64,000 bases of DNA, from positions 2,073,501 to 2,137,500 of the forward strand of contig NZ_CP048829.1 of the NCBI RefSeq assembly GCF_019355395.1, in the 5' to 3' direction. Positions 33,349-58,631 of the stretch are shown here, piece after piece. Source of the DNA: Chordicoccus furentiruminis. Lineage in GTDB: Bacteria > Bacillota > Clostridia > Lachnospirales > Lachnospiraceae. The translations under genes were made by a program, and so were the position numbers. The notes under the pieces are model-generated. The model was not told where the DNA came from. It worked only from the letters and a program-made list of their open reading frames with translations, and ran no database searches. Position 1 is the stretch's first letter, and every line of letters starts with the position of its first letter.

Positions 33349-33376
33349 GCGTTTCCGAAGCGGGAGCGCAGTACAG

Positions 33377-48331: not shown

Positions 48332-48340
48332 CTGTACTGC
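48332..48340. repeat. Left 9-bp target repeat CTGTACTGC
   Basis: The same nine bases occur at 58623-58631, flanking the outer IS. This is the expected target duplication of one insertion event. Confidence 0.75.
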
Positions 48341-48478
48341 GTAGTGTAATGTATAACCTCTGTATAACTGTGTATAACCCTTGATTTTGGAGGATTTGCA
48401 AATAAAAAGAGCAATACCCCCTACTTTTGTGTATAATGTCAATCGCCAAACCAACATTAGAAAGAGGTGATATTGCTC

Positions 48479-48539
48479 ATGGACATTATACAATATTTGG
48501 TTGCGGTCGTGAATGACCTTTATCGCCAGAACTGCTGGC
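48479..48539 (+). pseudogene. 5' fragment of the outer IS transposase
   Basis: AAAGAGGTGA precedes the ATG at 48479. Twenty codons (beginning MDIIQYLVAVVNDLYRQNCW) and the first base of the next are intact, then the composite transposon begins at 48540. The rest of the gene continues in frame at 56960: C(48539)+TG completes a Leu codon, giving NCWLISFI. Read here alone it would stop within the IS3 end (TAG at 48554). Confidence 0.9.
48537..48539. repeat. Left 3-bp target repeat GGC of the composite transposon
   Basis: GGC before the left IS3 copy matches GGC (56957-56959) after the right copy. Neither IS3 copy alone has matching flanks on its inner side. Removing one GGC plus the composite restores the transposase frame. 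Confidence 0.85.
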
Positions 48540-48696
48540 TAAACTGTACCCTGTAGAATGGACACCGATATTTTTGGGCCTCCCCATTTTATGGACAGTA
48601 TTTTTAGGGTGAAACCCCATTCGGTGGACACTACTATAACGGTTTTTATGGTAAGCTGTATCCAATCGTCAAGGTAACAGAAAGGATTGGATTACA

Positions 48697-49143
48697 GTGA
48701 AAAAAACTCATAAGAATCCACTTACCCCTGAGCAGGTGATCCAACTGCTAAAGAACCGCTACGTGAAGAGTGCCACACAGAATTCTGTCCGTTTTACAGA
48801 AGAGTTCAAACGATACTTTTACCAGAAGCATACGTCCGGCATGACTGTACGGAGCATCTTCCTTGAATGCGGTATCGACCCTGATGTTCTCGGAGAAAGC
48901 AGGATCAGCGGTTTCTGCCACACGGTTAATGTACAGGCAAAGCGTGATACAGGTTTTTCCGATAACCGGCAGAACAATTATCGGCGGCCTCCGAAATCGG
49001 AAGATGAAACTGTCGAAAGCCGGATCAAACAGCTGGAGCATGAACTTGCCTATACACGACAGGAGGTTGAATTCTTAAAAAAACTGCAAATGGCAGATAT
49101 GGAGGCGCGGAGACAATGGGAATCCAGGCACCAGCCGAAGTAA
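48697..49143 (+). CDS. IS3-family OrfA (left copy)
   Basis: 148 residues; the DNA-binding partner of the transposase. It has a helix-turn-helix near 25-70 (FTEEFKRYFYQKHTSG, MTVRSIFLECGIDP) and a leucine-zipper-like C-terminal coiled coil (ESRIKQLEHELAYTRQEVEF). GTG start with AAAGGA upstream. An A7 run at 49077-49083 (TTA-AAA-AAA-C), with AGGAGG just before it, lets ribosomes slip back one base into the OrfB frame, yielding the OrfAB transposase. Confidence 0.9.
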   Translation: MKKTHKNPLTPEQVIQLLKNRYVKSATQNSVRFTEEFKRYFYQKHTSGMTVRSIFLECGIDPDVLGESRISGFCHTVNVQAKRDTGFSDNRQNNYRRPPKSEDETVESRIKQLEHELAYTRQEVEFLKKLQMADMEARRQWESRHQPK

Positions 49144-50087
49144 AATTTGCGCTCATATATGAAGCCATTCAGCAGGATAATAATGTCCTTAGCATATCCT
49201 TCATGTGCGAAATTGCCGGAGTTTCACGATCAGGTTTCTATGCCTGGATGAAAGCGGCCCCGGCCAGACAAAAGCGCGAATCCCGTGATCAGGCTGACTT
49301 TGTCCTGATCCTGGAGGCATATCGTTTCCGCGGTTACAAAAAAGGTGCCAAAAGCATCTACATGCGTCTGTTGCATCAGGGGATCATCATGAATATCAAG
49401 AAGATCCGGAGACTGATGAAAAAATACAGCTTGGCCTGCCCGATTCGTAAAGCCAACCCCTACAGGCGTATGGCAAAGGCTCTTGCAACAAGTAATGTTG
49501 CTCCGAATATAGTAAATCGTGACTTCAGGAAAGAACCTCGGAAGGTTCTTCTGACAGACATCACTTACCTGTTCTTTGCAACCGGGAAGTGTTACCTGTC
49601 TACGATCCTGGACGCGTTTACGCATGAAGTGCTGGCTTATCGCGTAAGCCTCAGCCTCAAGGTGGATTTTGTTCTCGAAACAGTTGATCAGCTCAGAGAA
49701 AAGCAGGGGAGTACCCTGGACAACACAACCATAGTGCATTCAGATCAAGGCTGCCATTATACCAGCTATGCATTTATTCAGAAGCTGAAGGATTCCGAGT
49801 TCGTGCAGTCTATGTCCCGGCGTGGTAACTGCTGGGATAACGCACCTCAGGAAAGCTTTTTCGGACATATGAAGGACGAGATCAGAGAACTGATTTCTGA
49901 CTGCGAGTCCTTCGAGGCCGTCCTGCCTGTCCTGGATGACTGGATGGATTACTATAATAATGATCGGTACCAGTGGGACCTTCTTAAATTGTCACCGAAG
50001 GAATACTACACGTACCTGGAAACCGGAAAATATCCTCTTCCCTGCAAAGTGCCTGGAAGCGATGGTACACAAATATCAGGGAATTGA
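49116..50087 (+). CDS. IS3-family OrfB, DDE transposase (left copy)
   Basis: 323 residues, catalytic part of the transposase. An N-terminal HTH_21-like region (VSRSGFYAWMK, GAKSIYMRLLHQ) precedes the rve-type integrase core, with catalytic Asp in LLTDITYLFF, Asp in IVHSDQGCHYTS and Glu in PQESFFGHMKDE. It is one base back relative to OrfA and the frame stays open upstream to the A7 slip site, so it is normally made as OrfAB. The ATG at 49116 might allow separate OrfB synthesis. Sequence identical to the right copy. Confidence 0.93.
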   Translation: MGIQAPAEVKFALIYEAIQQDNNVLSISFMCEIAGVSRSGFYAWMKAAPARQKRESRDQADFVLILEAYRFRGYKKGAKSIYMRLLHQGIIMNIKKIRRLMKKYSLACPIRKANPYRRMAKALATSNVAPNIVNRDFRKEPRKVLLTDITYLFFATGKCYLSTILDAFTHEVLAYRVSLSLKVDFVLETVDQLREKQGSTLDNTTIVHSDQGCHYTSYAFIQKLKDSEFVQSMSRRGNCWDNAPQESFFGHMKDEIRELISDCESFEAVLPVLDDWMDYYNNDRYQWDLLKLSPKEYYTYLETGKYPLPCKVPGSDGTQISGN

Positions 50088-50684
50088 TACCAGCCTCTCC
50101 AATAGTTTTCTGCAGAACGGGGAAACTGATATCCCTCCAGGATTGTACCCGGCTCAAACGCCGCCGCCCTTCCCCGCCCGGCTTCCGGGGCAAAGCCCCG
50201 GAACAAAAGCAAGTCAAGTATAACCACAATGGTATACCGCCAGCTTCTCCAAGGTGGGTTTATCGCTTTGGTTTCCAAGAGGCAATGCATGCCTTCCTGC
50301 GGAAGCAATAAAAAAGGCAGTACATGTGCACTGCCTCTCGCAAACCCGATATGGCGCTCGTGTCGCTCCCCAGCGTTGCACTATCCTCCATATCGGTAAA
50401 GCAGTTACACATTAACACAGGTGGCGTCATCTGACACCCCTAAAAATCAAAGTTGTCCTTGACAAGGGGTACACTTCAAACTACCCTACCATCAATCAAC
50501 ACGACAACAGCAGGATCATGGTAGTTTAACCCGTATTACACGGGTTAATTCCCAATAATATTTCTCTTTTTCTTTTAGTTTCGTCTGCTTTCATTATCGA
50601 TGATTCCTCTTTTACATTGAATTTAATGCTTTTCAGGCTTAAGCAAACACCCATATTCGGATGTGCTTATTGAAGCCTAGCACA
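50088..50684. other. IS3 right-end region and start of the composite core
   Basis: 50088-50478 is the non-coding right end of the IS3 copy, ending in its inverted repeat. From 50479 the AT-rich core starts with AACTACC, matched inverted by GGTAGTT at 50520-50526, then a TTAACCCGT/ACGGGTTAA hairpin (50526-50548). AAGCAAACACCC...TGTGCTT near 50640-50670 could form a terminator-like hairpin for the minus-strand operon. No gene recognised. Confidence 0.4.
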
Positions 50685-51473
50685 TCAATCCATTAACACC
50701 GGGATAAACTTCCTTTCCCTAAAATAGCCTATTTGAATTCTATTAGGCAAACGCGGTACAACATCTCTAAAATGACCGGACAACCTATCTGAACTGTGAG
50801 CATCAGAACCAATAACAATTTTATTGCCACCAAGCTGAACATATCTGTTTATAACAGAGTATGATGGCATTGGTTCATCGCATGAATCATTAAGAGAAGA
50901 AGTATTTACTTCCAACAAAATATTCTTATCAATCATTGTTGAAAGAATCATATCCAGTACATCGTCGTCAATAACCCATTTGTCAAAAAATAATTTAGGG
51001 AAATCCAAGTGGGCCAGCACTTGAAAGCCCCCGAGCTCGACTGTTTTTTGCATTATTTGATAGTACTCATATATTGCTTTTGATACAGACAAATTTCCCG
51101 CTCCTGGAAAGACTGAATTATAGCAGTGATGTATCCCGGCCGTTATACAGTCGAAAGGATATGAACTATATAAGGCAAACTCTTCTGGAAACAAGCTAGG
51201 TTCCGAAAACTCAATTCCACTTAGCAAAGTTAACGAACCGTATTTTTTTCGCAAGCGGTTTATTTCACGGAAATAATCATCAACAACAAAGTTCTGTTTT
51301 CTGTTATCCTTAACAATTGAAAGATTCTTTTCCGCTGAATTAAAATCCACATGTTCAGTAAAACAAATAACTCTTGTACCCGTTTTGCCGGCAATCAGAC
51401 AATAATCCTCCATCGTAGACATTCCATCAATTGAGAATTTTGAATGGACATGCATATCAACAAATTCATTCAT
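50685..51473 (-). CDS. PHP-domain metal-dependent phosphoesterase (HisJ-like)
   Basis: 262 residues. The PHP fold starts with the metal ligands FVDMHVHSKFSIDG (H-x-H), continues with FTEHVDF, LLSGIEFSEPSLFPEE, GIHHCY, LAHLDFPKLF and ends with VIGSDAHSSDRL, all typical of histidinol-phosphatase-type PHP enzymes. No histidine genes are nearby, so the substrate is open: phosphate ester, nucleotide or another. The ATG at 51473 follows GGAGGCTCG; the frame is open to 51518. AT-rich compared with the chromosome. It is last in a minus-strand operon behind the radical SAM gene. Confidence 0.87.
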   Translation of the reverse strand: MNEFVDMHVHSKFSIDGMSTMEDYCLIAGKTGTRVICFTEHVDFNSAEKNLSIVKDNRKQNFVVDDYFREINRLRKKYGSLTLLSGIEFSEPSLFPEEFALYSSYPFDCITAGIHHCYNSVFPGAGNLSVSKAIYEYYQIMQKTVELGGFQVLAHLDFPKLFFDKWVIDDDVLDMILSTMIDKNILLEVNTSSLNDSCDEPMPSYSVINRYVQLGGNKIVIGSDAHSSDRLSGHFRDVVPRLPNRIQIGYFRERKFIPVLMD

Positions 51474-51544
51474 AATCGAGCCTCCATTTGTGAAGTTCAT
51501 GCAGATCAGTGAACGCAAATACTATATCACACTCCGACATGCTC

Positions 51545-52678
51545 TTATTTATGCGATGAACCCTTTTTTCCATTCTTGCTTTTATTGTTTACATAACGTC
51601 TCTTACTTGGCTTCAATCTACTCGAAGATCCAGCATTGTTCGACGAACCTGTATCCAATTCCGAAGCTCCTTTTTTCTTGGGTGCACTCATATTGCGGTT
51701 ATTTAATCTACTTACCAATTGACCACATGCAGCTTTTATATTGCCACCTCGGGATTCTCTGATTTTCACAGTAAGTCCCACCTTATTTAACTTATCACGA
51801 AATGCAACGAGTTCCTGTTTGTTTGGTCTTCGAACTGCTTTACAATCCGTTTCATTGTATTGTAAAAGATTAATCAATACATTTTTGTCACGAAACCATC
51901 TTCCCAACTGTTTTACATCATTCGCACGATCATTTACACCCGGTATAAGCAAATATGCTATAGTAACGCTACGATTATGTCTTTCTGAATATGAGAGTAC
52001 TGATTGAACTACTTCATTTATATCATACCCTTTCATATGCGGCATGATATAGTCCCTTACATGCTGATTCGTGGCATGCAGGGATAACGTAAGTTGGATT
52101 TTTAAATGTTCTTCTCTCAACTTCTTCATCTGAGGGAGCGGTCCCGTTGTTGATATTGTTATACCATCTGTTGGAAAATCAAGTCCTTTGCGGTCTCTTA
52201 ATATATGAATGGACTTTATCACGTTATCATAATTGAACAGAGGTTCTCCCATGCCCATGAATACAATCCTATTTACTCTACCATTTATTAGTATTACTTG
52301 TTGAACTATTTCAGATGGTGTTAGATTTCTGACAAATCCATTTTCACCAGAGGCGCAAAAGATGCACCCAACAGGGCAACCTATCATGGTGCTCACGCAT
52401 ACAGTAGTACCAGTTTTTCTTTTAATGCTTACCGTTTCAATGCAATAGCCATCTGACAATTCAAAAGCATATTTCTGAGTATCCGGACCACGAAAGATTT
52501 CTTTGATAGTTATCGTTTTATACTTGTTACTACTTTGGGGACCGGAGTATAATTCGCGATAAAACTTATCCGCCTCAACTTCTCCCAATACACCAACCAT
52601 TTCAGAATATGTGTATCCATATGGATCCTTATATATATCCGTGGCTTGAACAGAAGCATTCTTAACCATATTCAACAT
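51545..52678 (-). CDS. Radical SAM RNA methyltransferase, RlmN/Cfr family
   Basis: 377 residues. The radical SAM cluster is Cys101-x3-Cys105-x2-Cys108 in IGCPVGCIFCASG. The two family-specific cysteines are Cys94 (seven before the cluster, as in RlmN Cys118 and Cfr Cys105) and Cys318 in AACGQL, the methylated one. VFMGMGEPLFNY is RlmN-like, while LTLSLHATNQHVRDYIMP and ISTTG are intermediate between RlmN and Cfr. The N-terminal part is shorter than in RlmN, and a basic 50-residue Ser/Lys/Asn tail is unusual. The family methylates A2503 of 23S rRNA (RlmN: C2, Cfr: C8 with antibiotic resistance). GGAGG precedes the ATG. Carried on a transposon, so not the housekeeping copy. Confidence 0.88.
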   Translation of the reverse strand: MLNMVKNASVQATDIYKDPYGYTYSEMVGVLGEVEADKFYRELYSGPQSSNKYKTITIKEIFRGPDTQKYAFELSDGYCIETVSIKRKTGTTVCVSTMIGCPVGCIFCASGENGFVRNLTPSEIVQQVILINGRVNRIVFMGMGEPLFNYDNVIKSIHILRDRKGLDFPTDGITISTTGPLPQMKKLREEHLKIQLTLSLHATNQHVRDYIMPHMKGYDINEVVQSVLSYSERHNRSVTIAYLLIPGVNDRANDVKQLGRWFRDKNVLINLLQYNETDCKAVRRPNKQELVAFRDKLNKVGLTVKIRESRGGNIKAACGQLVSRLNNRNMSAPKKKGASELDTGSSNNAGSSSRLKPSKRRYVNNKSKNGKKGSSHK

Positions 52679-52724
52679 ATGACCTCCAATAAAAAATCAC
52701 GCTAAGATTCGTTGCAAAAGGCAA

Positions 52725-52997
52725 TCACATTTCCTTTGCAATACCCTCCTGAAAAACTTCCATGGAATCCAACATTTTCAGAGTTCGTTCATCACTACTA
52801 AAAACTGCAAACAATGCTAAAAAAACAGTCCAATTCAATTTTTTCTTACCATTTTCAATTGCATTATAAGTTTGCCTTGAAATGCCTATCTTTTCAGAGA
52901 TATCAGCTTGGGAAGCTCCTATCCTTGCACGCAGCACAGGCAACTCTGTTACCATTGTATTGATCAGTTCCATTCTCTTACTATTGTTAAACTCCAC
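52725..52997 (-). CDS. XRE-family helix-turn-helix regulator
   Basis: 90 residues, one HTH_3 domain: LRARIGASQADISEKIGISRQ followed in the fold by TYNAIENGKKKLNW. The order scan-helix, turn, recognition helix is typical of Cro/CI repressors. GTG start behind AAAGGGG. It is first in the minus-strand operon with the methyltransferase and PHP genes and probably represses their shared promoter. There is no toxin partner of a recognisable kind. Confidence 0.88.
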   Translation of the reverse strand: MEFNNSKRMELINTMVTELPVLRARIGASQADISEKIGISRQTYNAIENGKKKLNWTVFLALFAVFSSDERTLKMLDSMEVFQEGIAKEM

Positions 52998-53100
52998 TTC
53001 TAATCCCCTTTCTAAAGAATAATTTGCTCCTTTTACTTAAGTTTGTTTAATTATCGTTCAGCAAAAGACCGCAAATATTATCTTGAATGACAACAAATTT

Positions 53101-53129
53101 ATTATAGCGCATGTCATCTATGCTGTCAA
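53101..53129 (-). promoter_or_regulatory. Consensus promoter of the XRE-methyltransferase-PHP operon
   Basis: On the minus strand TTGACA (53129-53124) and TATAAT (53106-53101) with a 17-base spacer: a perfect sigma-A match. TGACA is repeated inside the spacer (GATGACATG), a possible operator. The leader to the GTG start is about 95 bases. Confidence 0.88.
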
Positions 53130-53168
53130 TATGTCACCCTCAGCGACTTTAAATCGAGATTTATAAAA

Positions 53169-53225
53169 GTAAATGCAACTATCATAACTGGTAATAGCGT
53201 TTACCTTCGCACAAGTTGCATTTAC
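53169..53225. repeat. 11-bp perfect inverted repeat, GTAAATGCAAC
   Basis: GTAAATGCAAC (53169-53179) and GTTGCATTTAC (53215-53225) are perfect inverse copies separated by 35 bases. The right arm contains the likely left end of the IS30-family element. Confidence 0.75.
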
Positions 53226-54954
53226 CCTTTCACACTATGCAGTCATCCGGTTTTGAAGTATGCCATTTGGGTTTTAACCATGCGCCCAAAGCGCATGGAA
53301 GGTTCTCTGGAGGAGGCCGGGGGGTGGGGCAGAGCCCCACGACATCTTTGACTTTCCTCAGAATTAGCCTGCTCATAGAGCAGCCGGACCTGATTAAGAT
53401 CAATTTGAACGTCGCGTGAGTTTGAGCGGGGTGGGAACCCTTGCTCATGACTTATGGGATATGTGGAGGAGGCGGGCGAAAACTCACGTGACGTTTCTTG
53501 ACTCAGGGTTTCTCTGTTAGTTTCTTGTTCTGGTTTAAATTCTGTCGGCTGAACGTGGTATGGTCATATCTCCTTCTGACAGCAGTGGAAGGAATTAGAT
53601 ATGAGTTCATTGATCCCTGGTAATTAGAAACATCTGAACAGTGATGACAGACAGTTCATCGAAATGTCCCTGGATCAGGAAATGTCTTTCAAAGAAATCG
53701 CGAAATATCTTTGTAAGGATCCGTCCACGATCTCTCGGGAAGTTAGAAAGCACCGGATGCACGACTGGTACCATAAGGGAACCTTCTACAACAGCAAAAA
53801 TTTCTGCATCCATAGATACCACTGCAACAAGACCAACGCGTGTGGCAATATCAGGATCTGCGGGGTCAAATGTCGTTCCTGCCCCACATGCAACCAGCAT
53901 TGCAGGGATTTCGTACTGGAACGCTGTGACCGCCTGCTGAAGGCACCTTATGTATGCAACGGCTGTAAGAAAAAGATCAACCATTGTACGGTCGCCAACA
54001 AATACAGGTATAATGCGGCCTTTGCAGACCGTAAGTACAGGGAAACCCTGGCCGATTCCCGCTCCGGTATCAACACTACGGAAAGCGGTCTCCGGAAAAT
54101 GGATAAGATCATCACTCCCCTTATTTTCCAGGGGCAGTCCCCTTATCAGATCGTCACCAATCATCCTGAGCTGGGCATTTCTGTGCGGACTATGTACACC
54201 TATCTCGATAACGGACTCTTTACTGCAAGAAATATCAATCTTAAGCGAAAAGTGAAGTTTAAGCCGAGAAAATGCCACAGCACACAGATCACTGACAGGA
54301 GTGTTTTTTTCGGCCGGACTTATGATGATTTCAAAGAGATCAGTCCTGACAACTGGGTCGAGATGGATACAGTCCATTCCTCAAGAGAGTCCAAAAAGAC
54401 CCTCCTGACCTTTTATTTCAGACAGGAAAAACTGTTCCTTGCATTTCTGATGAACCGCAATACAAAAGGCGCTGTACGTCTTGTGTTCGACAGACTTGAG
54501 AAGCGGCTTGGCCTGCATTCTTTTCTCGCTGTCTTCGGGCTGATACTGACCGACAGGGGCGGAGAATTTGGAGACCCGGATTCTCTGGAGACCGGCATTG
54601 ACGGTGTCATGCGTACCACTATCTATTACTGTGATCCCATGCGCAGCAGCCAGAAAGGCGGTGTGGAGAATGTCCACACTCTTCTCAGAATGGTCCTTCC
54701 GAAGAAGACGTCTTTTGAATATCTTACCCAGTGGGATGTTAACCTCATCGTCAATCACATAAACTCCACTCCGCGGCAGATCCTCGGTGGCAGGACTCCG
54801 TATGAGATGGCGGCAGCGTCGCTGGGAGAAGATGTCCTGAAAGCACTTCAGCTTAGGCCGATTCCCCCCTGATGAAGTGAACATGACACCTAAGCTGATA
54901 AAGTATAACCGTTAACCTCTCTCAAAAAATCTGCTGTCAGACTGGATGCAACTT
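53213..54954 (+). mobile_element. IS30-family element inside the composite core
   Basis: AAGTTGCAT at 53213-53221 and its inverse ATGCAACTT at 54946-54954 probably lie in the terminal repeats, about 1.74 kb apart, around one IS30-type transposase gene. Exact ends are not certain. A 380-bp leader before the gene holds two hairpins, CCATGCGC/GCGCATGG (53278-53298) and GTGGGGC/GCCCCAC (53324-53340). Confidence 0.6.
53601..54872 (+). pseudogene. IS30-family transposase with an early stop codon
   Basis: The natural start is the ATG at 53601 behind GGAAGGA (MSSLIPGN), but codon 9 is TAG (53625-53627), probably from CAG. The same frame continues open (KHLNSDDRQFIEMSLDQ) to 54872; translation might restart at ATG 53664, giving 402 residues. 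An N-terminal HTH (SFKEIAKYLCKDPSTISREV) is followed by a zinc-like Cys cluster, and the DDE core has WVEMDTVHSS, LILTDRGGEF and QKGGVENVHTLLR. Right end is complete. Loss of the first 21 residues may impair DNA binding, so I treat it as probably inactive. Confidence 0.75.
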
Positions 54955-55017
54955 TCACATTTTTCAATGCGGCCGGTAGCATTTAGTCCAGCACTCTAAA
55001 TGTCCAGCGGTCTTTTT
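54873..55017. other. End of IS30 element and remnant before the right IS3 copy
   Basis: No gene. 54873-54954 is the non-coding right end of the IS30-family element; 54955-55017 is a short remnant of unknown origin ending in a T-rich stretch. Confidence 0.4.
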
Positions 55018-55174
55018 TAAACTGTACCCTGTAGAATGGACACCGATATTTTTGGGCCTCCCCATTTTATGGACAGTATTTTTAGGGTGAAACCCCATTC
55101 GGTGGACACTACTATAACGGTTTTTATGGTAAGCTGTATCCAATCGTCAAGGTAACAGAAAGGATTGGATTACA

Positions 55175-55621
55175 GTGAAAAAAACTCATAAGAATCCACT
55201 TACCCCTGAGCAGGTGATCCAACTGCTAAAGAACCGCTACGTGAAGAGTGCCACACAGAATTCTGTCCGTTTTACAGAAGAGTTCAAACGATACTTTTAC
55301 CAGAAGCATACGTCCGGCATGACTGTACGGAGCATCTTCCTTGAATGCGGTATCGACCCTGATGTTCTCGGAGAAAGCAGGATCAGCGGTTTCTGCCACA
55401 CGGTTAATGTACAGGCAAAGCGTGATACAGGTTTTTCCGATAACCGGCAGAACAATTATCGGCGGCCTCCGAAATCGGAAGATGAAACTGTCGAAAGCCG
55501 GATCAAACAGCTGGAGCATGAACTTGCCTATACACGACAGGAGGTTGAATTCTTAAAAAAACTGCAAATGGCAGATATGGAGGCGCGGAGACAATGGGAA
55601 TCCAGGCACCAGCCGAAGTAA
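55175..55621 (+). CDS. IS3-family OrfA (right copy)
   Basis: 148 residues, identical to the left-copy OrfA: helix-turn-helix followed by a coiled coil, GTG start, and an A7 slip site at 55555-55561 for -1 frameshifting into OrfB. Two intact identical copies mean that either could supply transposase for both single-IS and composite movement. Confidence 0.9.
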   Translation: MKKTHKNPLTPEQVIQLLKNRYVKSATQNSVRFTEEFKRYFYQKHTSGMTVRSIFLECGIDPDVLGESRISGFCHTVNVQAKRDTGFSDNRQNNYRRPPKSEDETVESRIKQLEHELAYTRQEVEFLKKLQMADMEARRQWESRHQPK

Positions 55622-56565
55622 AATTTGCGCTCATATATGAAGCCATTCAGCAGGATAATAATGTCCTTAGCATATCCTTCATGTGCGAAATTGCCGGAGT
55701 TTCACGATCAGGTTTCTATGCCTGGATGAAAGCGGCCCCGGCCAGACAAAAGCGCGAATCCCGTGATCAGGCTGACTTTGTCCTGATCCTGGAGGCATAT
55801 CGTTTCCGCGGTTACAAAAAAGGTGCCAAAAGCATCTACATGCGTCTGTTGCATCAGGGGATCATCATGAATATCAAGAAGATCCGGAGACTGATGAAAA
55901 AATACAGCTTGGCCTGCCCGATTCGTAAAGCCAACCCCTACAGGCGTATGGCAAAGGCTCTTGCAACAAGTAATGTTGCTCCGAATATAGTAAATCGTGA
56001 CTTCAGGAAAGAACCTCGGAAGGTTCTTCTGACAGACATCACTTACCTGTTCTTTGCAACCGGGAAGTGTTACCTGTCTACGATCCTGGACGCGTTTACG
56101 CATGAAGTGCTGGCTTATCGCGTAAGCCTCAGCCTCAAGGTGGATTTTGTTCTCGAAACAGTTGATCAGCTCAGAGAAAAGCAGGGGAGTACCCTGGACA
56201 ACACAACCATAGTGCATTCAGATCAAGGCTGCCATTATACCAGCTATGCATTTATTCAGAAGCTGAAGGATTCCGAGTTCGTGCAGTCTATGTCCCGGCG
56301 TGGTAACTGCTGGGATAACGCACCTCAGGAAAGCTTTTTCGGACATATGAAGGACGAGATCAGAGAACTGATTTCTGACTGCGAGTCCTTCGAGGCCGTC
56401 CTGCCTGTCCTGGATGACTGGATGGATTACTATAATAATGATCGGTACCAGTGGGACCTTCTTAAATTGTCACCGAAGGAATACTACACGTACCTGGAAA
56501 CCGGAAAATATCCTCTTCCCTGCAAAGTGCCTGGAAGCGATGGTACACAAATATCAGGGAATTGA
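55594..56565 (+). CDS. IS3-family OrfB, DDE transposase (right copy)
   Basis: 323 residues, identical to the left-copy OrfB with the Asp (LLTDITYLFF), Asp (IVHSDQGCHYTS) and Glu (QESFFGHMKDE) catalytic motifs intact. Expressed as OrfAB through the -1 shift. No disabling mutation seen. Confidence 0.93.
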   Translation: MGIQAPAEVKFALIYEAIQQDNNVLSISFMCEIAGVSRSGFYAWMKAAPARQKRESRDQADFVLILEAYRFRGYKKGAKSIYMRLLHQGIIMNIKKIRRLMKKYSLACPIRKANPYRRMAKALATSNVAPNIVNRDFRKEPRKVLLTDITYLFFATGKCYLSTILDAFTHEVLAYRVSLSLKVDFVLETVDQLREKQGSTLDNTTIVHSDQGCHYTSYAFIQKLKDSEFVQSMSRRGNCWDNAPQESFFGHMKDEIRELISDCESFEAVLPVLDDWMDYYNNDRYQWDLLKLSPKEYYTYLETGKYPLPCKVPGSDGTQISGN

Positions 56566-56956
56566 TACCAGCCTCTCCAATAGTTTTCTGCAGAACGGGG
56601 AAACTGATATCCCTCCAGGATTGTACCCGGCTCAAACGCCGCCGCCCTTCCCCGCCCGGCTTCCGGGGCAAAGCCCCGGAACAAAAGCAAGTCAAGTATA
56701 ACCACAATGGTATACCGCCAGCTTCTCCAAGGTGGGTTTATCGCTTTGGTTTCCAAGAGGCAATGCATGCCTTCCTGCGGAAGCAATAAAAAAGGCAGTA
56801 CATGTGCACTGCCTCTCGCAAACCCGATATGGCGCTCGTGTCGCTCCCCAGCGTTGCACTATCCTCCATATCGGTAAAGCAGTTACACATTAACACAGGT
56901 GGCGTCATCTGACACCCCTAAAAATCAAAGTTGTCCTTGACAAGGGGTACACTTCA

Positions 56957-56959
56957 GGC
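56957..56959. repeat. Right 3-bp target repeat GGC of the composite transposon
   Basis: Matches GGC at 48537-48539. Length fits the 3-5 bp duplications of the IS3 family. Confidence 0.85.
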
Positions 56960-58344
56960 TGATTTCTTTTATCTGCAAATATATTCCCCTTAAACAGTGG
57001 GCTTTCGATGACGCCACTTCCCCAAAATACGAGAAATTCAAAACGGATAAGCTGCCTGTCATTATTCCCGTTGAGAAAAAAGACTGGAAGCATCTCCGGA
57101 TGGAATACAAGCGAAGCCACAACGGCCGTGACCTGCCTCCAGTCAGGCGCCGGAAGGATTGTGATCTTCCTTCTGGCCTTCGCTGTCCCTGCTGCAACGC
57201 CCCCGTCGACTACATTTACCGCAATAACGGTTCCAAAGGACAATGCCTTTGTAAGGCCTGCGGGAAGATGTTTTCTCCCGGGACCAGACGCTTTAACAAA
57301 AAATTCGAGCTCCATTGCCCCTTCTGCGGCCATTCCCTTGTGCCCGTAAAGAGCCGTAAGCATTTCACCATCTGGAAGTGCGTGAATCGGAACTGTTCAT
57401 ACTACAAGAACAGCCTGAAGCATGTGGATCCCGACTCACCGAACGGCAAGAGTGACTACAAACTCCACTATCTTTACCGCGAGTTCACCATGGACTTCTT
57501 CCAGATGAAACTGGACGATGGTTCTGGAAAAGTAGCTGCTATGCGTTTCCGCAAGTTTGACCAGAACATCATGGGCTTATGTCTGACGCTCCATGTCAAC
57601 CTCCAGCTTTCCCTGAGAAAAACATCACAGGCCCTCATGGATCTCTATGGCTTCCGGGTCAGCCACCAGCAGGTTGCCAACTACTGTAAGATTGCCGCCA
57701 GATGTGTAAAGCCCTTCGTTGACCATTACGACTACCATCCCGGCTCCGCTTTTGTGGCGGATGAGACTTACATCAAGGTCCGCGGCATTAAATCTTACAT
57801 CTGGTTCATCATGGATGCGGTAAGCCGCTCCATCATCGGCTACCGGGTATCCGCCAGCCGCAGTGTCGGGCCATGTATCATGGCCATGCGGATGGCCTTC
57901 CGGCATCTGGGGAATGTTCTTCCCGAAGGCTTTAAATTCATTGCTGATGGATACAGCGCCTACCCTCTGGCCGCCCAGCAGTTCCTCTACAAGTTCGGCG
58001 AAAAGATGAAATTCGAGATTACCCAGGTCATCGGACTAACCAACAGCGATGCCGTCACAACGGAGTACCGCCCGTACAAACAGCTGATCGAGCGGCTCAA
58101 CCGCACGTACAAGGCGTCCTACCGTCACACCAACGGCTTCGATGGATTGGAAGGCGCCAACTATAATCTGGCGCTCTGGGTTGCCTACTACAACTTTCTG
58201 CGTCCTCACAGGCACAACCGCTTCCAGGTGCTCAACAAAGATCCTGACATTGAACTCGCCGGCAGCATGCCAGGCAAATGGCAGATCATGATATACCTCG
58301 GCCAGAAGGCCATCCTGGAACAGCAAAAAGCTGCGCAGGCATAA
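56960..58344 (+). pseudogene. 3' fragment of the outer IS transposase (DDE type)
   Basis: Continues the 5' fragment at 48479-48539 in frame; joined, it gives 481 residues. Two zinc-ribbon-like Cys clusters occur (CPCCNAP...CKACGKMF and CPFCGHS...CVNRNC), then an HTH-like stretch (SLRKTSQALMDLYGFRVS). The DDE core follows: FVADETYIKVRG, FIADGYSAY, and Glu in YKQLIERLNRTYKASY, with an IS6/IS240-like layout. In the present state only an internal ATG (57100) could start it, giving 414 residues with the DDE core but without the N-terminus. Zinc ribbons plus a DDE core make it possibly still partly functional. Confidence 0.88.
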
Positions 58345-58622
58345 GTCTGTTCATAGATTCTGAACCAGAGGCAGACGCCCAGGCACCCCGAAGGGGCCTG
58401 CCCTTGACGGCATGCCGCAGCTGCGTTACGCTGGGATGCCCGCGACGGGAGAAGCCTGTCTGTTCATGAGTTCCTCACCGTCGGCACAGCCACTCCAACG
58501 CAGCTCCGGCATGCTGTCAAGGGTGCCGTCTATCTGAAAAAGGTTTATTATTTGCAGTTTTCAAGGTTCCACGGGAGCCTTTATTTTTGGCTCCGCTTTT
58601 TCATAGGTTATTTGACACTACC
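58345..58622. other. Non-coding right part of the outer IS
   Basis: No gene recognised. It contains GC hairpins such as CAGGCACCCC/GGGGCCTG near 58380-58400, and ends with the inverted repeat ATAGGTTATTTGACACTAC. Confidence 0.4.
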
Positions 58623-58631
58623 CTGTACTGC
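58623..58631. repeat. Right 9-bp target repeat CTGTACTGC
   Basis: Same nine bases as 48332-48340; marks the right edge of the outer IS insertion. Confidence 0.75.

What the first reader, a model, noticed from the sequence alone, without database searches (positions are those of the whole stretch)
48332..58631. A transposon within an IS that can be undone base by base
Seen: CTGTACTGC flanks an outer IS (48341-58622), and GGC flanks an inner 8.4-kb unit (48540-56956). Joining 48539 to 56960 restores an unbroken 481-codon transposase (NCW-LISFI across the join). Neither inner IS3 copy has matching repeats on its inner side, so the unit with both copies moved as one. This gives a clear order of events: outer IS first, composite second. 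The IS3 copies appear identical, implying recent movement.
Basis: seen in the sequence. Interest (0 to 1): 0.7.

Follow-up and report, generated by a model that had tools for sequence, protein, structure and literature searches.

The report
Nested transposons in a bacterial chromosome
A jumping gene landed in a bacterial chromosome and was later split by a larger mobile segment carrying a few foreign genes; the order of events is clear, but this is an ordinary kind of event.

Summary
The window's own genome carries a natural, uninterrupted copy of the outer element (99.9% identical over the part shared). It has GGC once where the window has two GGCs around 8,417 bp, and it encodes an unbroken 485-codon transposase (481 from the inner ATG). 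The two IS3 copies are identical over 1,939 of 1,939 bases. The 3-bp duplication fits the family: 10 of 16 distinct relatives show one at exactly these ends. Correction: the outer element probably spans 48340-58622 with an 8-bp duplication (CTGTACTG), not 9 bp; 7 of 12 distinct relatives show exactly 8 bp, none 9. It is IS6-like, resembling the long zinc-finger clade.

Outer first, inner second, is firm. "Moved as one with both copies" is only the most likely route: insertion of a one-IS circle, or recombination of such a circle with a resident IS3, would leave the same structure. No empty outer site was found in relatives. The cargo (37% GC in its gene part, window 57.5%) holds an RlmN-like radical-SAM gene, a PHP gene, a small HTH gene; an IS30-type transposase follows. 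A well-documented new member of a known kind.

The parts
48332..48339 (.). Left copy of the 8-bp target duplication of the outer element (CTGTACTG)
   Evidence: 8 bp in 7 of 12 distinct relatives
58623..58630 (.). Right copy of the 8-bp target duplication of the outer element
48340..58622 (+). Outer IS6-like insertion sequence, 10,283 bp as interrupted; 1,863 bp of its own once the unit and one GGC are discounted
48479..48539 (+). 5' piece of the outer transposase gene, from the ATG up to the insertion (a GTG lies in frame at 48467)
56960..58344 (+). 3' piece of the outer transposase gene (zinc-finger-like Cys pairs by eye, IS6-type DDE domain)
48537..48539 (.). Left GGC of the 3-bp duplication around the inner unit
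56957..56959 (.). Right GGC of the 3-bp duplication around the inner unit
48540..56956 (.). Inner IS3-family composite unit, 8,417 bp, direct-repeat ends
48540..50478 (+). Left IS3-family element, 1,939 bp (OrfA 48697-49143, OrfB 49116-50087)
55018..56956 (+). Right IS3-family element, identical to the left one
50685..51518 (-). PHP-domain, HisJ-type phosphatase-like gene (cargo)
51545..52678 (-). RlmN/Cfr-superfamily radical-SAM gene (cargo), scoring higher for RlmN than for Cfr
52725..52997 (-). Small helix-turn-helix protein (cargo)
53664..54872 (+). IS30-family transposase inside the unit; its element may be cut at the right IS3

Best explanation
A 1,863-bp IS6-like insertion sequence inserted between two divergent predicted genes, 23 bp outside a small gene on the left and 216 bp from a periplasmic-binding-protein gene on the right, and duplicated 8 bp (CTGTACTG). 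Later an 8,417-bp IS3-family composite unit, two identical direct-repeat IS3 copies around low-GC cargo, came to lie in the 5' end of its transposase gene with GGC duplicated; that gene is now split. Shown: the ends, both duplications, the uninterrupted copy and the order of events. Inferred: the IS3 transposase, made by -1 frameshifting between OrfA and OrfB, inserted the whole unit in one event, as a ready-made composite or by replicative insertion of a circle with one IS3. The confidence given is for the nest and its order; the one-event route alone I put at about 0.6.
For: IS3 copies identical 1,939/1,939 with GGC only at the outer edges. Natural uninterrupted copy in the same genome with the triplet once and an unbroken 485-codon frame. 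IS3 relatives: 10 of 16 distinct show 3-bp duplications at exactly these ends; shifting both ends by 1 or 2 bases gives 0 of 16, shifting the right end alone gives 0 to 2 of 16. Outer-element relatives: 7 of 12 distinct show 8-bp duplications. The genome's only other IS3 match is a 26-bp end fragment, and the 2,680-bp cargo stretch searched (50481-53160) occurs once, so IS3 and cargo may well have arrived together. GC of that stretch is 37% against 57.5% for the window.
Against: GGC is short, 1 in 64 by chance on its own; the uninterrupted copy carries most of the weight. 6 of 16 IS3 relatives and 5 of 12 outer-element relatives show no exact duplication. No donor copy of the composite was found: cargo DNA in 2 of 42 genus genomes including own, the other at 81% and partial; IS3 DNA at best 67% and partial in the 3 other genus genomes of 42 with at least 300-base or shorter end matches, and at best 84% over 223 bases elsewhere in 397 sampled family genomes, of which only 2 candidates each were scored; no megablast match in plasmid or phage records. 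No empty outer site in relatives. Reads were not available, so misassembly between the two identical IS3 copies cannot be excluded directly.
Confidence: 0.85

Rival explanations
1. Same nest, other route, in two steps: a lone IS3 first inserted at GGC, then a circle carrying one IS3 plus the cargo joined it by homologous or transposase-targeted recombination, giving IS3-cargo-IS3 with GGC only at the outside.
For: The end state is identical. An IS2-like (IS3-family) composite in Burkholderia thailandensis forms circles with one IS and was found inserted next to existing copies without target duplication; its authors could not rule out homologous recombination (PMC6350997, passages read).
Against: It needs two arrivals of an IS otherwise absent from this genome apart from a 26-bp end fragment.
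Confidence: 0.3
2. Two independent IS3 insertions that happen to bracket the cargo, followed by rearrangement.
For: The unit contains other mobile DNA (an IS30-type transposase), so it is a mosaic.
Against: The inner flanks carry no matching triplet, the outer flanks carry the same 3 bp, and within the part shared with the uninterrupted copy no base of the outer element is missing.
Confidence: 0.03
3. Assembly artefact: repeats misjoined so that the cargo is wrongly placed inside the outer element.
For: Two identical 1.9-kb direct repeats are a classic assembly hazard (general knowledge); reads could not be checked.
Against: The genome is held as one 3.27-Mb contig, and the junctions show a family-correct 3-bp duplication that a misjoin would not create.
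Confidence: 0.03

Closest known systems
IS6 family, clade i (long transposases with zinc finger and N-terminal extension; PMC7986276, passages read)
   Same: 8-bp target duplications in the family; IS6-type catalytic domain as best family hit; Cys pairs (by eye) plus an extra N-terminal part; about 450 aa in the paper, 481 here
   Different: 1.86 kb instead of about 0.8 kb for most of the family; below the NCBIfam IS6 cut-off (72-75 against 125 bits); the paper's three clade-i members come from Halanaerobia and Thermoanaerobacter
IS3-family composite transposon of Burkholderia thailandensis (IS2-like ends, circle with one IS; PMC6350997, passages read)
   Same: Two near-identical IS3-family copies around passenger genes
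   Different: 8.4 kb instead of 210 kb; a 3-bp duplication is present here; no circle shown here
Classical composite transposons such as ISApl1-mcr-1-ISApl1 (Tn6330; PMC5821093, search listing with abstract start only)
   Same: Two copies of one IS around cargo
   Different: Different IS family (recalled: ISApl1 is IS30 family) and different cargo

Membership tests
IS3 family (inner elements) | OrfB matches the IS3 transposase model above cut-off | tested here: met
   NF033516 263.6 bits, cut-off 160
IS3 family (inner elements) | Two overlapping ORFs, the second in the -1 frame, with a slippery A run | tested here: met
   OrfA 48697-49143 and OrfB 49116-50087; run of seven A at 49077, from where the OrfB frame is open; frameshifting itself not shown
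IS3 family (inner elements) | Terminal inverted repeats and 3-bp target duplication | tested here: met
   Ends; 10 of 16 distinct relatives with 3-bp duplications
Composite transposon | Two copies of one IS around cargo, duplication only at the outer edges | tested here: met
Composite transposon | Moves as a unit | tested here: inconclusive
   No second copy or donor found
IS6 family (outer element) | 8-bp target duplication | tested here: met
   7 of 12 distinct relatives exactly 8 bp, none 9, 5 without; window consistent
IS6 family (outer element) | Transposase above the curated IS6 cut-off | tested here: not met
   Best family is IS6, but 72.1-75 bits against 125; hence called IS6-like, not filed as a member
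IS6 family (outer element) | Placement with clade i in a transposase tree | not tested
   Only length and domain layout compared with the paper's text
Cfr (cargo radical-SAM gene) | Above the Cfr model cut-offs | tested here: not met
   NF000424 185.4 against 530; TIGR04432 178.5 against 550
RlmN (cargo radical-SAM gene) | Above the RlmN model cut-off | tested here: not met
   TIGR00048 274.6 against 290; the genome's own RlmN scores 398

The most novel reading that the evidence does not exclude
The inner unit is a compact IS3-family transposon that travels as a circle with one IS3 and spreads a second, divergent RlmN-like RNA-modifying enzyme among Clostridia, which would make circle-forming IS3 composites a wider class than the Burkholderia case.
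Probability: 0.2. Interest if true: 0.5.

Novelty: new member of a known kind. Interest (0 to 1): 0.22.

Why it matters
It is a clean, base-level example of nested mobile elements, with an uninterrupted reference copy in the same genome that makes the order of events testable. It also places a divergent RlmN-like gene on a mobile unit. In itself it changes no view of transposition.

Tried and rejected
Empty outer site in relatives. The left flank matched 18 of 42 genus genomes (own included), in the others mostly at 64-76% identity and mainly within the cobW-like gene, with three short matches at 86-96%. The right-flank gene matched 35 of 42 (own included), the main matches at 36-48% protein identity. 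In 9 left-flank loci and 14 right-flank loci from other genomes, each only 2.3-4.7 kb long, none holds both flank genes. The small left gene gave no hit in 24 loci; its query was cut in the wrong frame, and repeats it correctly. So the outer target site was not seen empty; longer stretches were not examined.

Same elements elsewhere: no megablast match of 48340-58622 in plasmids or phages; no relative of the outer transposase in viral contigs; one PHP relative there, 55% identical; 18 loci with relatives of the IS3 OrfB there, the best 69%. No Rfam match in 46-61 kb at gathering thresholds. A literature search for nested elements in Lachnospiraceae gave 0 papers, which says little.

Considered and rejected: a 9-bp duplication for the outer element; independent insertion of the two IS3 copies (inner flanks); filing the cargo gene as Cfr. 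Rows set aside: 4 duplicates and 1 locus whose end was too near the contig end, two rows (L210, L212) that are the same places as L021 and L020, and L191, which has no left flank. Loci without both ends are not in the denominators.

Full report
WHAT IS THERE. The window is bases 2,073,501-2,137,500 of a single-contig genome of 3,267,205 bp; no call names the organism. The two IS3-family copies at 48540-50478 and 55018-56956 are identical over 1,939 bases. Outside them stand GGC on the left (48537-48539) and GGC on the right (56957-56959), while the inner flanks are AAC and TTT. The IS3 ends are TAAACTGTACCC... and ...GGGTACACTTCA, an imperfect inverted repeat. CTGTACTGC occurs on the + strand only at 48332 and 58623, and its reverse complement once, at 33368.

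THE TEST OF THE JOIN. It was not needed: the same genome holds an uninterrupted copy of the outer element, on the minus strand at about C1:2,933,968-2,935,765. The left piece of the window matches it 203 of 203 and the right piece 1,596 of 1,598, and the two matches overlap by exactly 3 bases in that copy, i.e. the target triplet is there once. The two differing bases are at window 58172 and 58377. A 60% identical transposase in the same genome aligns across that point without a gap.

IS THE 3-BP REPEAT REAL? GGC alone would match by chance once in 64. I looked for both IS3 ends in the IS3-related loci (47 loci). Both ends were found in 21; after dropping 4 duplicates and 1 locus too near a contig end, 16 distinct insertions remained. 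Of these, 10 have an exact 3-bp duplication at the same ends and 6 have not. Shifting both ends by 1 or 2 bases gives 0 of 16, and shifting only the right end gives 0 to 2 of 16. So the family rule is 3 bp, and the window obeys it.

CORRECTION OF THE OUTER ENDS. The same check on relatives of the outer element (29 loci plus 5 from earlier calls) gave 12 distinct insertions with both ends and both flanks. 7 of 12 have an exact 8-bp duplication, none 9, and 5 have none. 11 of these 12 start GGTAGTGT; the congener copy L115, the window copy and the second copy in this genome start CGTAGTGT; the right end is CACTACC in all 12 and in the window. The outer element is therefore best read as 48340-58622 with CTGTACTG duplicated. 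It has 1,863 bp of its own, against 1,839-1,919 bp for the 12 relatives. It is IS6-like: the best NCBIfam family is IS6, but below the cut-off (72-75 against 125 bits). The IS6 review (PMC7986276, passages) describes 8-bp duplications for the family and a clade of about 450-aa transposases with a zinc finger and an extra N-terminal part, which fits; a tree was not made.

THE SECOND COPY. The uninterrupted copy lacks the last 68 bp of the element: at the point equal to window 58554 it meets an element with an ISL3-family transposase (271 bits, cut-off 180), and words of the missing tail were not found in about 4 kb beyond. So of the two near-identical copies in this genome, one has both ends but a split gene, and the other a whole gene but only one end. 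Three copies of a more distant relative (73% over the best-matching stretch) have both ends and 8-bp duplications.

THE CARGO. Between the IS3 copies lie a PHP/HisJ-like gene, a radical-SAM gene and a small HTH gene (all minus strand, about 37% GC), and an IS30-family transposase at 49% GC, in a 57.5% GC window. The radical-SAM protein scores 274.6 bits for RlmN (cut-off 290) and 178-185 for Cfr (cut-offs 530-550); the genome also has an ordinary RlmN (398 bits). One of 41 other genus genomes has an 81% DNA match over HTH, radical-SAM and a 25-residue stub of PHP. Two annotated relatives sit near mobile or resistance genes: a 64% protein on a Paraclostridium bifermentans plasmid beside hflX and near tetracycline-resistance genes, and a 62% protein near relaxase and recombinase genes in a Monoglobus record. 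A third record had no annotation, and the surroundings of the four closest genome contigs relatives (54-62%) were compared only with this unit's own genes, of which just the radical-SAM gene matched. Its function is unknown and I do not call it a resistance gene.

HOW IT AROSE. Firm: the outer element was in place before the unit, because the unit lies inside its gene at a single duplicated triplet. Likely: IS3 and cargo came in together, since the genome's only other IS3 match is a 26-bp end fragment and the cargo stretch searched occurs once. In the genus only the own genome has the IS3; the 3 others of 42 with any match are 66-80% over up to 506 bases, or a 23-base end match. Open: en-bloc transposition of a ready composite, replicative insertion of a circle with one IS3 (a route described for IS26; for IS3 it is inference), or a lone IS3 followed by recombination with such a circle. 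All three would leave this structure. The Burkholderia IS2-like composite (PMC6350997, passages) shows that one-IS circles occur in this IS family.

VERDICT. An ordinary, well-documented nest of known kinds of mobile element, with a minor correction of the outer boundary and a clear natural reference copy.

Noticed in passing
51545-52678 (-): Second RlmN-like radical-SAM gene, below both RlmN and Cfr cut-offs; one relative (64%) lies on a Paraclostridium plasmid beside hflX and near tetracycline-resistance genes, another (62%) near relaxase and recombinase genes.
   Followed up: partly
L018:1469 (G000:C1, about 2.934 Mb): The uninterrupted outer-element copy lost its last 68 bp at an element with an ISL3-family transposase; no tail found on the other side.
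   Followed up: yes
53041-55017: Two IS30 relatives in congener G006 continue alike beyond the point where the window sequence meets the right IS3, so the IS30 element inside the unit may be cut by that IS3.
   Followed up: partly
L023 (G034:C33): A congener carries the HTH and radical-SAM pair at 81% DNA identity with only a 25-residue stub of the PHP gene, next to a carbamoyltransferase-like frame (by eye).
   Followed up: partly
L022 (G000:C1:2816568-2816593): A solitary 26-bp match to the IS3 right end elsewhere in the genome, perhaps a remnant of a related IS.
   Followed up: partly
48337-48339 and L018 left flank: Both copies of the outer element have CTG just outside the left end; chance (1 in 64) or a target preference.
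   Followed up: no
58401-58523: Inverted repeat of 27-nt arms, 93% complementary, 69 nt apart, in the non-coding right part of the outer element; no Rfam match.
   Followed up: no
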